From contig JAFKFH010000003.1 in the NCBI GenBank assembly GCA_017307375.1, positions 124,001 to 188,000 on the forward strand: 64,000 bases of DNA, in the 5' to 3' direction. Below the pieces are notes generated by a model. That model worked only from the letters and a program-made list of their open reading frames with translations. It was not told where the DNA came from and made no database searches. Of this stretch, positions 38,997-43,602 are shown one piece after another (the stretch's first letter is position 1; every line of letters begins with the position of its first letter). Made by a program: the position numbers and the translations under genes. The DNA is from Alphaproteobacteria bacterium. GTDB taxonomy: Bacteria > Pseudomonadota > Alphaproteobacteria > Ferrovibrionales > Ferrovibrionaceae.

Positions 38997-39317
38997 CTAT
39001 CCCTCCTTGCGCCTGAGCACGCCGCCGAAGCGTACCGCCAGGGCCATGTCGCCCCTGATCTTCAGCCGCCCGGTCATGAAGGCGGCCGTGCCGTTCAGCC
39101 GCCCCTGCGCCATGTCGACGAAATCGGCAATGGCGATCTGCAGCGTGCAGTCGGCATCGCCAGGCTCGTTGGTGATCCGGTTCGGCACGCCGCGCGCATC
39201 GATCAGCACCGACCCGTCGGCGCCGAAATCGAGCCGGACGCGCGCGCCCAGCCCGCAATCGCTGCCGATCGCGTCGGCCAGTCCCGTCGTCACCTTGGCC
39301 AGCAGGTCCTGGTTCAT
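38997..39317 (-). CDS. SCP2 sterol-carrier domain protein
   Basis: 106 residues forming one SCP2 (sterol carrier protein 2) domain: VRLDFGADGSVLIDARG, DADCTLQIAIADFVDMAQGR and NGTAAFMTGRLKIRGDMALA are the family-typical segments, the last lining the lipid tunnel. It would bind a fatty acyl or steroid-like ligand in the cytoplasm. Its start overlaps the stop of the Cys-rich gene by four bases (ATGA), so it is the last gene of the ADC-family/SDR operon. Confidence 0.87.
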   Translation of the reverse strand: MNQDLLAKVTTGLADAIGSDCGLGARVRLDFGADGSVLIDARGVPNRITNEPGDADCTLQIAIADFVDMAQGRLNGTAAFMTGRLKIRGDMALAVRFGGVLRRKEG

Positions 39318-39553
39318 CGGCTGGCCCCCCTCAACGCGTCGCGGCACCCGGTCGAGAGCTCCGCCTCCCTGCCCTTCAGGCAGGTCAGCAGGCGCCCGCC
39401 GCCGGGCTCGATGCCCTGGCAGAATTTCTGCGCATCGGCCCGGCAGGCACGGGCGACGGCGCGCGCCCGCTCCTTCTGTTCGGGCGTCACCTGGGCTGCG
39501 GCCTGCCCTGCCACCAGCAGCAGCATGGCCATGACAACGATACGGCCCGGCAT
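39314..39553 (-). CDS. Small secreted Cys-rich repeat protein
   Basis: 79 residues with a signal peptide (RIVVMAMLLLVAGQAAA-Q). The mature part is one helical cysteine-rich repeat of the GLG1 type: ARACRADAQKFCQGIEPGGG followed by RLLTCLKGREAELSTGC, with the C...C-x-x-I-x-P-G-x-G-R-L-x-x-C-L spacing. Such small proteins are common in proteobacteria and have no known activity. It begins one base after the ADC-family stop and is coupled to the SCP2 gene. Confidence 0.83.
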   Translation of the reverse strand: MPGRIVVMAMLLLVAGQAAAQVTPEQKERARAVARACRADAQKFCQGIEPGGGRLLTCLKGREAELSTGCRDALRGASR

Positions 39554-39554
39554 G

Positions 39555-40358
39555 TCAGTGCGGCACGCGCGCGAGGTCGGCGCGCAACAGGGTTTCGGAT
39601 CGCGTCATCACTGCACCGACGAAGCCCAGGTTGGGCAGGGCGGCCAGCCCGGCGATGACATGGGCCTGGGTCGGATTGTGCCGCGGGTCGGGCGGCAGCC
39701 ATTCGAGCACGGCCTGGCCGAACCAGGCCTCGCGCACCGTGAAATCCTGCGGGCAGACGACGGGTTCGCTGACCGCGGCACCGGGCGCGCCCACCTTCGG
39801 CAAATAGCGCCAGCCGAACCAGTTGACCCGCTCCAGCCCGGCCTGCAGCAGGGCGATCTCGTCGCCGTCGGCGGCACGGGCCGCGGTCAGCCCGATGTCG
39901 AGAAAGCGCCGGCCTTCGTAGTGCGACCAGGAATGCGTCTCGCCGGCAGGGAATTCCCGCAGCGGCTCGATCTCGGCAAACACCTTGGGCACGCCGAGCA
40001 TCTCGCGCCCCGCGATGATCGGCGTCGTCTTGTTCTCCCACACCGCCAGGCCGAAGACGCCGTCCAGCCGGTCGACACTGCCTTCGAAGCGCACCGGCAC
40101 GTTGACCGCGACGAGGTTGTAGGGGCTGCCCGCCATCCACTCGACGCCGCGGTTGTTGATGCAGGAAACGAGGATCTCCGGCCGCAGCAGGCTGAAGCCG
40201 GGCGGCAGCAGCCGGGTCAGCGCCGCCGCCTCGGTGGCGTAGGCGATGGTCAGGCTGAGCGTATCGGCATAGCGCAGCGCCGGCGGCGGATAGGGCGTGC
40301 CGCCAAAGAAGGGCGGCATCGAATAGAGGGTATGGTCGTCATCGAACGGTCGCAGCAT
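39555..40358 (-). CDS. Acetoacetate decarboxylase family protein
   Basis: 267 residues. The family core GREMLGVPKVFAEIEP holds the Schiff-base lysine (K115 of the clostridial enzyme), but the next residue, normally the pKa-tuning K116, is valine here. Other conserved parts are ENKTTPIIAGRE before it and PNLGFVGAVMT near the end. Members with this change need not decarboxylate acetoacetate; the superfamily includes aldolase- and dehydratase-like enzymes. The ATG at 40358 has AGGAG at the right spacing. It is nine bases downstream of the SDR gene. Confidence 0.82.
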   Translation of the reverse strand: MLRPFDDDHTLYSMPPFFGGTPYPPPALRYADTLSLTIAYATEAAALTRLLPPGFSLLRPEILVSCINNRGVEWMAGSPYNLVAVNVPVRFEGSVDRLDGVFGLAVWENKTTPIIAGREMLGVPKVFAEIEPLREFPAGETHSWSHYEGRRFLDIGLTAARAADGDEIALLQAGLERVNWFGWRYLPKVGAPGAAVSEPVVCPQDFTVREAWFGQAVLEWLPPDPRHNPTQAHVIAGLAALPNLGFVGAVMTRSETLLRADLARVPH

Positions 40359-40367
40359 CGGCAACTC

Positions 40368-41183
40368 CTAGAGGGCGAAACGGGGATCTCGGGCGCAGGC
40401 GTCGTAGTCGGCCTGGATCATCTGGTGGCGCAGGTCGAGCAGGCTGCGCATATGCGGATCGGTGAAGATGTAGCCGCGGCCGGCCGCGATGCAGTCGGCG
40501 GTCCAGTCGCCGACCACCTGCGGATCGATGCCGCCTTCGACCAGGGCGCCGATCGTCTCGGCCACCGCCGGCACTTCATGGTCGGCCGCGCCGGCGCGGC
40601 GGGCATGGGACTGGTGGATCCGGGTGCGCACCCAGCCGGGCGCCAGCACCGAGACCCCGATATGGTGATCGGCAAGTTCGGCGCGGATCGCCTCGGCATA
40701 GCCGACCACGGCGAATTTCGTCGCCGCATAGGGGCTGAGGCCCGGCAGCCCGGCCCAGAAGCCGGTCATCGAGGCGGTGTTGACGATATGGCCGCCCTGT
40801 CCGTGGGCCTTGATCAGCGGCACGAAGGTCTCGACGCCATGGACGACGCCCATCAGGTTGACGTCGACGATCCAGCGCCAGTCGGCAAGCGCGGTGGCCC
40901 CGACCTCGGCACCGAACGAGACTCCGGCATTGTTGACCAGGATGTCGACCCGGCCGAACCGGTCGAGTGTCGCGCGCGCCGCGGCGCGAACCGCCGCGAT
41001 GTCGGCGACGTCGCAGACGGTGGCGGCGGCGCCGTCGAGCCCGGCGGCCGCAGCCTCGACGCCGGGGCCGTCGAGATCGGCCAGCATCACCCGGACCCCG
41101 CGGGCGGCCAGCGCCCGGGCGATGCCGAGGCCGATGCCGGAGGCCGCCCCGGTCACGAACGCCACTTTGTCCTGCAGTTTCAT
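40368..41183 (-). CDS. Short-chain dehydrogenase/reductase
   Basis: 271 residues. Classical SDR: cofactor motif TGAASGIGLGIARAL, D in MLADLDG (NAD preference), NNAGVSFGAE, catalytic S in NTASMTGFWAG and Y-x-x-x-K in SPYAATKFAVVGYAE. The C-terminal HMRSLLDLRHQMIQADYD is seen in SDRs linked to lipid or steroid alcohols. The ATG at 41183 follows GGAGG. It is the first gene after the operator-like motif at 41237-41264 and heads the SDR, ADC-family, Cys-rich, SCP2 operon. Confidence 0.92.
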   Translation of the reverse strand: MKLQDKVAFVTGAASGIGLGIARALAARGVRVMLADLDGPGVEAAAAGLDGAAATVCDVADIAAVRAAARATLDRFGRVDILVNNAGVSFGAEVGATALADWRWIVDVNLMGVVHGVETFVPLIKAHGQGGHIVNTASMTGFWAGLPGLSPYAATKFAVVGYAEAIRAELADHHIGVSVLAPGWVRTRIHQSHARRAGAADHEVPAVAETIGALVEGGIDPQVVGDWTADCIAAGRGYIFTDPHMRSLLDLRHQMIQADYDACARDPRFAL

Positions 41184-41236
41184 CGGGCACCTCCCTGTCC
41201 GGTGCCCGTCACCTTGCCCGGCCCGGCGGCGGGCGA

Positions 41237-41264
41237 CCATGATCCGGCAGGTAAGGATCAGTAG
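41237..41264 (-). promoter_or_regulatory. Operator-like motif, copy A (upstream of SDR)
   Basis: The core GATCCGGCAGGTAA, flanked by CCAT on one side and GGATCAGTAG on the other, is shared with copy B at 43575-43602 (22 of the first 25 positions identical). It begins 53 bases upstream of the SDR start and overlaps the stop codon of the MmyB-type regulator gene. Two copies, each before a transcription unit of the block, suggest the regulator's own binding site. Confidence 0.6.
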
Positions 41265-42106
41265 GGGCAGAGCGGATGGGCGTGATCGTCCTGGCGGTCG
41301 AGCCAGGCCCGGTCGATCACCGGGCTGCCGGCCTCGGGGTAGACGGTCTGGATGATCAGCCGCTCCTCGCCGCCATAGGGGGTTCCGCCGACCGTATGGT
41401 GGACGACCCGGAAGCCGTGTACCTGCCCGTCGCGCCCGGCGAGGTCGAGGCGGTAGTCGCCCTGCGCGGTCGACCAGCCGGCACCGCGCCGCGCCCAGTC
41501 TGCCGGCACGCCGGGCAGGGCCAGGATGCGCGCCATCAGCTGCGAGGCCCGCGCATCCTCGCGAATGATCACCTCCTGCTGCAACAGCATCAGGAAGACG
41601 CAGGCGATGCGTTCCCAGTCGGGGGCGAAGCGCCGCCAGCCGCGTTCGTCCAGGAACAAGAGCATCGCGTTGAGCCGCACGCCATCGGCGATGTCGCCGA
41701 GATAGTGACGATGGGCGAAGACCCAGGCGCGGTTGACCAGCCTTATCTCGCCGCAGGAATCCATCACCACCGAGGGATAGGGATCGGTATGGCGCAGCAT
41801 CAGCACCAGCGTGTCGCGCAGATCGGCATGCGCGGGATCGGCCAGATCGAGCGCGGGCGCTTCGGGGAAGAACCCGGCCGACAGCAGCAGCACGGCGGTC
41901 TCGCGGGCGCCGAGGCCGAGGCCCGCGGCCAGGGCAAGGATGCTGGCGCGGCTGGCCGCGGTGCGCCCGTTCTCGAGAAAGCTGACATGGCGGGCCGAAA
42001 GCCCGGCGCGGCCGGCCAGTTCCTCCTGCGACAGGCCGAAGGCGGTCCGCCAGAACCGCAGCAGGCGGCCGAAGACGGCAAGACGGTCGCGCGGGCCGGC
42101 CGCCAT
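41258..42106 (-). CDS. XRE-type regulator with MmyB-like ligand-binding domain
   Basis: 282 residues. N-terminal helix-turn-helix: FGRLLRFWRTAFGLSQEELA, then GRAGLSARHVSFLENGRTAA. The C-terminal MmyB-like domain has PSVVMDSCGEIRLVNRAWVF, LLFLDERGWRRFAPDWERIA and, near the end, TVGGTPYGGEERLIIQTVYP, all characteristic. MmyB-like regulators are often genomically linked to short-chain dehydrogenases and may bind fatty-acid-like ligands. Here the SDR gene is next downstream, with an operator-like motif between, and the DUF1254 gene is 10 bases upstream, so it probably controls both units. Confidence 0.88.
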   Translation of the reverse strand: MAAGPRDRLAVFGRLLRFWRTAFGLSQEELAGRAGLSARHVSFLENGRTAASRASILALAAGLGLGARETAVLLLSAGFFPEAPALDLADPAHADLRDTLVLMLRHTDPYPSVVMDSCGEIRLVNRAWVFAHRHYLGDIADGVRLNAMLLFLDERGWRRFAPDWERIACVFLMLLQQEVIIREDARASQLMARILALPGVPADWARRGAGWSTAQGDYRLDLAGRDGQVHGFRVVHHTVGGTPYGGEERLIIQTVYPEAGSPVIDRAWLDRQDDHAHPLCPY

Positions 42107-42116
42107 GCCCGGCGGT

Positions 42117-43508
42117 TCAGCGCGCCGCCGGGGTCACGGCGGGCGGCTGCCACCGGCCTTCCAGCATGCGGGCCTCGGGCCAGTAGATCCGCATCGACAG
42201 CTCGAATGCGCCGGATGCCGGCGTCGGCAGCCAGTTCGCCCCAGCCCGCCCGCCGGGATCGGTCGGCTGCAGGCGCAGGACCAGCGCGCCATCGGCCTCG
42301 TAGACCAGGTCGTCGCCGCCCTTGATCGCATGCCGGCCGCCGGGAGCATCGAGCAGATAGCCGTCGCGGTCGTAGAGCGTCACCGACCAGAAGGCGCGGG
42401 CCGGCGGCGTCGCGCCGGGCGCAAAGGTCAGGGTGTAGGCCTTGCCGCCCTCCAGGCTGGCACCGGCGCCGTCGATGGCCGCATTGAGATAGACCGCGTC
42501 GGCCGGCAGGTTGGCGCCGAGGCCGAGCAGCGCCACCGCCGCCCGCGCCGGATAGTCGGTACCGTAGTCGCCGATGGTGAAGCCGGCCCCGCCGAGACCG
42601 GTCCAGCCGTTGACCGGCTGGGCCCCGCGGCCGGCGGCACGCAAGCCCGCCAGCGCCTTCGCCGCCCCCTGCTCCAGCGCCGCACGCCGTTCGGCCGGCA
42701 ACGCGTCCCAGTCGAGCCGGCCGGGGGCGAGGCCGAGGGGGCCGAGCACCCCGGCCACGACCGGCGCATCGGCGGCGGCGGGCGGGTTGTCGGCAAGCAG
42801 GGCGGCGAAGCGGACGAAGAAGTCGCGCGCGGCCATGGCGGCGACCTGGTCCTTCGGCGTCGTGCGCGCCGGCAGCGGCGTCAGCCGCAGGGTCGGGCGC
42901 GCGGCGGTGAAGGCGGCGTCGCCCACCCGGCTCAGCGGCCGCAGGTCCAGCTTCTGTTGATAGGCCTGGGCGGCGGGCAGCGATCCCTTCCGGTTGGCAT
43001 CGATGCGGCCGATGATCCAGACCATCGCCGTCGGTGCATCGAGCCGCTCGACGCCTTCGGGCAGGCGACCCTGCCAGCCCGGACCGACGATCGCGTAGGT
43101 CCGCGCGGCATTGCCCTGGGTGCGGATGCCCGGAGCGGCAAAAACGTTGGTCCAGGCGTCCATGCACTGGATCATGTAGTAGAGGCCGTCCGACGGCGGC
43201 ACGCTCATCAGGACGGGTTCGTCCTTCACGTCGACCCAGGCGGTCGAATAGATCGTGTCGACGTTCGGCCGCACCACCGTACGAAAGCTGGCATTGGCCA
43301 GGACCGGAATGTGCAGGAAGCGGTTCGGCGCGATGTTGGCGGCCACCGGGCTCGACAGGCTCGCGACCCGCGTCATGTCGGTCAGCACCAACGGATAGGC
43401 GTAGACATAGGCCTGCACGGCGAGCTCGGCCTCGGTGGCGGCCCGCGCGCCGGCGGCCGGCAGCATGGCCGCGATCACCAGCATGGCGGCAATCAACCGC
43501 ATGATCAT
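42117..43508 (-). CDS. Secreted DUF1254/DUF1214 protein
   Basis: 463 residues with a signal peptide (LIAAMLVIAAMLPAAGARA-A). DUF1254 half: AVQAYVYAYPLVLTDMTR, RPNVDTIYSTAWVDVKDEPV and DGLYYMIQCMDAWTNVFAAP. DUF1214 half: PPARAFWSVTLYDRDGYLLD ending NWLPTPASGAFELSMRIYWP. The family is widespread, secreted, and functionally undescribed. The ATG at 43508 follows GGAGG. It is the first gene of the regulated block, with the second copy of the operator-like motif 66 bases upstream, and runs into the MmyB-type regulator gene. Confidence 0.9.
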   Translation of the reverse strand: MIMRLIAAMLVIAAMLPAAGARAATEAELAVQAYVYAYPLVLTDMTRVASLSSPVAANIAPNRFLHIPVLANASFRTVVRPNVDTIYSTAWVDVKDEPVLMSVPPSDGLYYMIQCMDAWTNVFAAPGIRTQGNAARTYAIVGPGWQGRLPEGVERLDAPTAMVWIIGRIDANRKGSLPAAQAYQQKLDLRPLSRVGDAAFTAARPTLRLTPLPARTTPKDQVAAMAARDFFVRFAALLADNPPAAADAPVVAGVLGPLGLAPGRLDWDALPAERRAALEQGAAKALAGLRAAGRGAQPVNGWTGLGGAGFTIGDYGTDYPARAAVALLGLGANLPADAVYLNAAIDGAGASLEGGKAYTLTFAPGATPPARAFWSVTLYDRDGYLLDAPGGRHAIKGGDDLVYEADGALVLRLQPTDPGGRAGANWLPTPASGAFELSMRIYWPEARMLEGRWQPPAVTPAAR

Positions 43509-43574
43509 GTCGTTTCCTCCCTGGACGCATCTTGGCTTGGCCGGGACAGCCTGCGCAGCCCCCGGCGGACCGCG

Positions 43575-43602
43575 CCATGATCTGGCAGGTAATGACTAGT
43601 TC
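43575..43602 (-). promoter_or_regulatory. Operator-like motif, copy B (upstream of DUF1254)
   Basis: GATCTGGCAGGTAA inside a longer stretch matching copy A. The 17 bases at 43577-43593 form an imperfect palindrome (AT-n-A-n-CTG-G-CAG-n-T-n-AT, six of eight pairs). It overlaps the stop codon of the SirB1-like gene and lies 66 bases upstream of the DUF1254 start. Confidence 0.6.

What the first reader, a model, noticed from the sequence alone, without database searches (positions are those of the whole stretch)
38997..43602. Six-gene MmyB-type regulator block with a duplicated operator-like motif
DUF1254, MmyB-type regulator, SDR, acetoacetate-decarboxylase family protein, Cys-rich repeat and SCP2 run in one direction with gaps of 1-74 bases. 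The same unusual motif (core GATCnGGCAGGTAA) stands 66 and 53 bases upstream of the DUF1254 and SDR starts and nowhere else that I saw. A ligand-sensing regulator, an alcohol dehydrogenase, a Schiff-base enzyme and a lipid carrier suggest an undescribed pathway for a lipid or steroid-like compound.
Basis: partly seen in the sequence, partly recalled or inferred. Interest (0 to 1): 0.6.

Follow-up and report, generated by a model that had tools for sequence, protein, structure and literature searches.

The report
MmyB-type repressor operon and its operator
Two copies of a rare DNA word in front of a six-gene block are very probably the docking sites of the block's own fatty-acid-receptor-like regulator, and they belong to a palindrome that marks the genes of a whole branch of such regulators, whose DNA targets I found no published description of.

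Summary
CCATGATCyGGCAGGTAA occurs at 41237-41254 and 43575-43592, 53 and 66 nt before the SDR and DUF1254 genes. These are the only exact copies in the 7.54-Mb genome, and no other genome in a 385-genome Alphaproteobacteria scan had an exact copy. In a Sphingopyxis MAG with the orthologous set (ADC 51%, MmyB 51%, DUF1254 49%, SCP2 48% identity), the word occurs once in the genome, 65 nt upstream of the ADC gene. The word is one intact half (CAGGTAA) and one diverged half (TGATCyG) of a palindrome, TTACCT-N3-AGGTAA. That palindrome lies upstream of 49 of 75 alphaproteobacterial MmyB/MltR-family genes (0.2 expected), usually 49-90 nt before the start codon. It goes with the 'SQ..LA...RHxSFxE' DNA-binding domain and not with the actinobacterial 'RRTPGLRREEVA' type. 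Regulators with Cys instead of Phe in the recognition helix have TGACCT...AGGTCA instead. A matrix trained on these sites ranks the two window sites first and second in 64 kb. So this is an autoregulated MmyB-family regulon of two operons. Repression, the ligand and the pathway remain unproven; a steroid link is a guess.

The parts
43575..43592 (-). operator-like site B (TTACCTGCCAGATCATGG on the minus strand; palindromic core 43578-43592), upstream of the DUF1254-mmyB operon
   Evidence: top-scoring site of the window with a matrix from other genomes
42117..43508 (-). DUF1254/DUF1214 protein, 463 aa, apparent N-terminal signal sequence
   Evidence: PF06863 and PF06742; closest solved relative 3u07, E 1.4e-28; ortholog 49% in L094
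41258..42106 (-). MmyB/MltR-type regulator: XRE helix-turn-helix plus MLTR_LBD ligand-binding domain
   Evidence: PF17765 46 bits (cut-off 26.3), HTH_31, HTH_3; ortholog 51% in L094
41237..41254 (-). operator-like site A (TTACCTGCCGGATCATGG on the minus strand; palindromic core 41240-41254), upstream of the SDR-ADC-Cys-SCP2 operon
   Evidence: second-best site of the window
40368..41183 (-). classical short-chain dehydrogenase/reductase, 271 aa, with TGAASGIG, NNAG and YAATK
   Evidence: PF00106 160 bits; motifs; nearest solved chains 3ioy and C-alpha-dehydrogenases 4ya6/4yae
39555..40364 (-). acetoacetate-decarboxylase-family protein; Schiff-base lysine position kept (K127 in GVPKV), the second lysine of the canonical PKK pair is Val
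   Evidence: PF06314 112.6 bits; 40% identical to solved 3cmb, E 1.4e-56; 51% ortholog in Sphingopyxis
39314..39553 (-). small exported-looking protein with 4 Cys (Cys_rich_FGFR repeat)
   Evidence: PF00839 29.9 bits; signal-like N-terminus and Cys 37, 45, 58, 70
38997..39317 (-). stand-alone SCP2 sterol-carrier-type domain protein
   Evidence: PF02036 58.3 bits; 48% ortholog next to ADC in L094

Best explanation
The two sites are operators of the block's own MmyB/MltR-type regulator. Site B controls the DUF1254-mmyB operon, so the regulator controls its own gene. Site A controls the SDR-ADC-Cys-SCP2 operon. The regulator would bind as a dimer to an imperfect 15-bp palindrome, TTACCTG-n-CrGATCA. 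This is a diverged form of the operator TTACCT-N3-AGGTAA that marks a large proteobacterial branch of the family. Inferred: binding represses both operons, and a small hydrophobic ligand in the PAS-like domain releases it. The products then act on that compound or a precursor: the SDR oxidises an alcohol or reduces a carbonyl, the ADC-family enzyme does Schiff-base chemistry on a beta-keto or aldehyde intermediate, SCP2 carries the hydrophobic compound, and DUF1254 and the Cys-rich protein work outside the cytoplasm. Shown: gene set, sites, uniqueness, conservation, family-wide palindrome and its link to the recognition helix. Inferred: repression, ligand, substrate.
For: Only two exact copies in 7.54 Mb, both at the start of the two transcription units. 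The one orthologous locus found, a Sphingopyxis MAG, has exactly one TTACCTGnCnGATCATGG in the genome; the next best sites have 3 mismatches. It lies 65 nt upstream of the ADC gene. 49 of 75 alphaproteobacterial MLTR_LBD genes have TTACCTnnnAGGTAA (at most 2 mismatches) upstream, against 0.20 in simulations. An unseeded search for gapped palindromes returns the same one. It is absent upstream of the RRTPGLRREEVA type and present in other classes of the phylum. 5 of 5 RHxSC regulators have TGACCT..AGGTCA against 0 of 63 RHxSF regulators (Fisher p 1e-7), in three places on the tree. A matrix trained on these sites puts the two window sites 1st and 2nd in 64 kb and the Sphingopyxis site 1st in 16.8 kb, 16.5 bits against 3.8 for the next.
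Against: The second half-site deviates (GATCA instead of GGTAA), and the window and Sphingopyxis regulators lie on a long branch of their own, so the family operator is applied by extrapolation. In Sphingopyxis the mmyB operon itself (TonB receptor to MmyB) shows no clear site upstream, so autoregulation is not seen there. A TetR gene stands next to the ADC there and is a rival binder. No binding data exist. The ligand domain matches Pfam only over its first 120 of 168 positions, and the structure prediction was too poor to use (pLDDT 55).
Confidence: 0.82

Rival explanations
1. The sites are bound by another regulator of the genome (for example a TetR-type protein), and the MmyB gene is only a passenger controlled by it.
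For: In Sphingopyxis a two-domain TetR-family gene stands directly before the site and the ADC gene, and the mmyB operon there has no clear site.
Against: No TetR gene lies in the window block. The word matches a palindrome tied to MmyB-family genes across many families, and it covaries with the MmyB recognition helix. In a further Sphingomonadaceae genome the same 15-mer stands at the stop codon of another MmyB-type gene.
Confidence: 0.1
2. The sites are a conserved promoter or transcript element (for example a special -35/-10 region or a leader RNA signal) rather than a regulator site.
For: Both copies begin 3 nt after a stop codon and stand at similar distances from the next start; they have a fixed orientation in the window and in Sphingopyxis.
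Against: No sigma-70-like element was found in the region. The word occurs twice in the genome, too rare for a promoter class. In L207 the same word has the reverse orientation relative to the downstream gene, as fits a dyad site.
Confidence: 0.05
3. Pathway: the block degrades an imported terpenoid, fatty-acid-derived or steroid-like compound.
For: SCP2 and an MmyB/MltR ligand domain (myristate bound in MltR, PMC3406030); in Sphingopyxis a TonB receptor and a serine hydrolase lie in the regulator operon. The gene behind the same operator in L207 is of the limonene-epoxide-hydrolase family, 136 bits.
Against: No ring-cleavage, CoA-ligase or P450 gene is in the block. ADC next to SDR is common in methanogens and syntrophic anaerobes (36 of 69 ADC loci), which argues for small beta-keto chemistry. 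No substrate was tested.
Confidence: 0.35
4. The repeated word is a chance or a local duplication without function.
For: GC-rich flanks look loosely alike.
Against: Similarity stops at about 18 nt; two exact copies of a 17-base word in 7.5 Mb both fall in the two short gaps before operon starts; the word is kept in Sphingopyxis at about 50% protein identity.
Confidence: 0.03

Closest known systems
MmyB/MltR family of XRE-type regulators (PF17765; MltR of Chloroflexus aurantiacus, PDB 3pxp, PMC3406030)
   Same: XRE helix-turn-helix plus PAS-like ligand domain; gene adjacent to an SDR gene, the association that Xu et al. describe for actinomycetes; predicted by them to bind a two-fold symmetric site
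   Different: Belongs to the proteobacterial SQ-type DNA-binding branch. The published account gives no operator beyond 'B-boxes' for MmyB; here an operator is proposed and tested on many genomes. Whether it represses or activates is unknown (MmyB itself activates).
Acetoacetate-decarboxylase superfamily (PF06314), nearest solved member 3cmb
   Same: Full-length homology and the Schiff-base lysine position
   Different: The neighbouring second lysine of the classical enzyme is Val; operon partners differ; activity unknown
Palindromic XRE operators predicted from upstream regions (Wang et al. 2025, PMC12565409)
   Same: Same logic: autoregulated XRE genes carry palindromes upstream; that paper reports TTAC-containing segments for two XRE proteins
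   Different: Main text does not name MmyB-type regulators with this palindrome; its supplementary motif list could not be read here

Membership tests
MmyB/MltR-type regulators | MLTR_LBD ligand-binding domain over the curated cut-off | tested here: met
   PF17765 46.1 bits, cut-off 26.3, profile 2-120 of 168
MmyB/MltR-type regulators | N-terminal XRE helix-turn-helix | tested here: met
   HTH_31 and HTH_3 over cut-off
MmyB/MltR-type regulators | PAS-like fold that binds a fatty-acid-type ligand | tested here: inconclusive
   AlphaFold model pLDDT 55, only the HTH is reliable; no ligand test possible
MmyB/MltR-type regulators | adjacent SDR/MDR or antibiotic gene | tested here: met
   SDR starts 74 nt after mmyB
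Proteobacterial SQ-type branch with operator TTACCT-N3-AGGTAA | recognition helix of the type RHxSFxE | tested here: met
   SARHVSFLE in the window, SPRHVSFLE in Sphingopyxis
Proteobacterial SQ-type branch with operator TTACCT-N3-AGGTAA | operator with both half-sites intact | tested here: inconclusive
   one half intact, the other diverged; 2 and 3 mismatches, still the best two sites of the window
Acetoacetate decarboxylase | catalytic Schiff-base lysine | tested here: met
   K127 aligned with the PK of solved members
Acetoacetate decarboxylase | decarboxylase activity | not testable with these tools
   second lysine replaced by Val; from general knowledge, the superfamily contains enzymes of other function
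Classical SDR | TGxxxGIG cofactor motif and YxxxK | tested here: met

The most novel reading that the evidence does not exclude
A whole proteobacterial branch of MmyB/MltR-type ligand-sensing regulators uses one previously unreported operator, ATTACCT-N3-AGGTAAT, usually 49-90 nt before its own gene. One recognition-helix residue sets the second base of each half-site (Phe: TTACCT; Cys: TGACCT; Tyr: mixed). The window system is a derived case with an asymmetric operator that couples the regulator to an SDR/ADC/SCP2/DUF1254 pathway.
Probability: 0.6. Interest if true: 0.6.

Novelty: new variant of a known kind. Interest (0 to 1): 0.5.

Why it matters
MmyB/MltR-type regulators are numerous and sit next to uncharacterised oxidoreductases, but their DNA targets and ligands are mostly unknown. 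A readable operator with a specificity residue makes regulons, and therefore the pathways and ligands, predictable from sequence and directly testable by gel-shift in many proteobacteria. For this locus it defines exactly which six genes belong together.

Tried and rejected
A single-protein scan of genome contigs with the regulator found no relative. Relatives of the genome held no closer regulator than about 40% identity, and none of those is next to ADC or SDR. The 18-mer with one mismatch in 385 Alphaproteobacteria and 347 Sphingomonadaceae gave mostly scattered hits away from the gene set; the exceptions were the Sphingopyxis ortholog and the MmyB-linked site in G538. Candidate sites in G472, G433, G461, G572, G530 and G565 were fetched and had no gene of the set. 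Plasmid records with the ADC family have other neighbours. The viral scan found nothing. A second orthologous locus was looked for in 337 Sphingomonadaceae and not found. The structure model of the regulator was too poor for a fold search. Automatic picking of the genes divergent from the operators gave mostly spurious frames, so no partner statistics are claimed. Literature searches for the palindrome gave no hit.

Full report
Observation. The six genes and both motif copies are present as described. The shared word is CCATGATCyGGCAGGTAA (plus strand), that is TTACCTGCCrGATCATGG on the coding strand, at 41237-41254 and 43575-43592. Each copy begins 3 nt after the stop codon of the gene before it and stands 53 or 66 nt before the next start codon. 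The exact core occurs twice in the 7.54-Mb genome. With three mismatches allowed to the 18-mer there are many sites, but only three have one mismatch or fewer: the two copies themselves and one inside a coding sequence. No other genome in the 385-genome scan of the class holds an exact 18-mer.

Orthologous locus. The closest solved relative of the ADC-family protein is 3cmb. An alignment of the two found 70 loci in named genomes. The best, a Sphingopyxis MAG (L094), holds the set: ADC 51%, regulator 51%, DUF1254 49%, SCP2 48%, plus a more distant SDR (about 34%), a TonB receptor, a serine beta-lactamase-type hydrolase and a TetR-family gene. Gene order differs, so the locus has been rearranged. 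In this genome TTACCTGnCnGATCATGG occurs once without mismatch, the next sites having three, and it stands 65 nt before the ADC start codon.

From word to operator. The word is an imperfect palindrome: TTACCTG is one half, and GATCA with its flank is a diverged other half. I tested the perfect palindrome TTACCTGnCAGGTAA around MmyB-type genes of relatives and found it immediately upstream of many. On 75 alphaproteobacterial genes with the MLTR_LBD domain, 49 have TTACCTnnnAGGTAA with at most two mismatches within -300 to +40 of the start. Simulated sequences gave 0.20 on average (largest 2). Relaxed to three mismatches, 51 real regions match against about 3.4 control windows from the same loci. 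Distances cluster at 49-53 nt, most within 48-90 nt. The seed came from the window's own half-site, so I repeated the search without a seed: the most frequent gapped palindromes are ATTACC-N5-GGTAAT and TTACCT-N3-AGGTAA (16 and 14 regulators, shuffles at most 3).

Which regulators. The palindrome goes with the DNA-binding domain of type SQ..LA...RHxSFxE. It is not found with the RRTPGLRREEVA type, which makes up the other part of the family, and it is also present in other classes of the phylum. Where the residue after RHxS is Cys, all five operators read TGACCT..AGGTCA. Where it is Phe, none of 63 do (Fisher p about 1e-7, not corrected for relatedness), and the three Tyr cases are mixed. On a tree of 73 regulators, the Cys/Tyr changes fall in at least three separate places. 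Such covariation is what direct contact of protein and site would give.

Back to the window. A matrix built from 51 sites at other regulators ranks 43578 first (16.5 bits) and 41240 second (12.5 bits) in the 64 kb. It puts the Sphingopyxis site first in its 16.8 kb (16.5 bits against 3.8 for the next). In a Sphingomonadaceae genome (G538, L207) the 15-mer TGATCCGGCAGGTAA, identical to window site A, overlaps the stop codon of another MmyB-type gene. It precedes a gene of the limonene-epoxide-hydrolase family, and that regulator has a second site before itself. This is the same logic as in the window: one operator for the regulator's unit, one for the next unit.

Model. The regulator, as a dimer, holds site B (DUF1254-mmyB) and site A (SDR-ADC-Cys-SCP2). 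A ligand in its PAS-like domain changes binding. Repression with release is my inference from distance and autoregulation; MmyB itself is an activator (PMC3406030). MltR bound a fatty acid in the crystal (PMC3406030), so a hydrophobic ligand is plausible but not shown. The SDR has all catalytic motifs, and the ADC-family protein keeps the Schiff-base lysine but not its second lysine. SDR directly next to the ADC-family gene on the same strand recurs in 36 of 69 loci, mainly methanogens and syntrophic bacteria, so these two enzymes probably act in sequence. DUF1254 and the Cys-rich protein look exported. The Sphingopyxis TonB receptor suggests uptake of an outside compound there. A steroid or lipid substrate is possible, not demonstrated.

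Limits. There is one orthologous locus only; no second was found in 337 Sphingomonadaceae. The window and Sphingopyxis regulators lie on a long branch and their second half-site differs from the family form. The matrix and the first palindrome search were seeded from the window's half-site, so the ranking of the window sites is not fully independent of them; the unseeded search, the Sphingopyxis site and the covariation are. The structure model of the regulator is not usable beyond the HTH. The supplementary motif list of a 2025 survey of XRE palindromes (PMC12565409) could not be read, so the palindrome may already be listed there.

Noticed in passing
L242, L023, L319, L324, L348 against the RHxSF set: MmyB-type regulators with Cys (or Tyr) instead of Phe after RHxS carry TGACCT (or mixed) half-sites instead of TTACCT; a possible specificity code.
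   Followed up: partly
L095-L152: The ADC-family gene is directly followed by an SDR gene on the same strand in 35 of 69 loci (36 counting one with the SDR upstream), mostly Methanomicrobiales, syntrophic bacteria and Clostridia; an uncharacterised enzyme pair.
   Followed up: partly
G000:C16 about 41.1-42.1 kb (L015, L276): The genome has a second MmyB-type regulator with its own operator TTACCCGCGAGGTAA 71 nt upstream.
   Followed up: partly
L207 633-1966 (G538): MmyB-type gene with a site before it and a window-like site over its stop codon, followed by a limonene-epoxide-hydrolase-family gene.
   Followed up: yes
G507:C1:366632-369448: Six near-copies of the 18-mer at spacings of 312 nt or multiples (one about 3 nt short); probably a tandem repeat, unrelated to the regulator.
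   Followed up: no
G000:C16:530355-531125 and C20:190427-191002: Two further ADC-family homologs in the genome (36% and 29% identical), outside the block.
   Followed up: no
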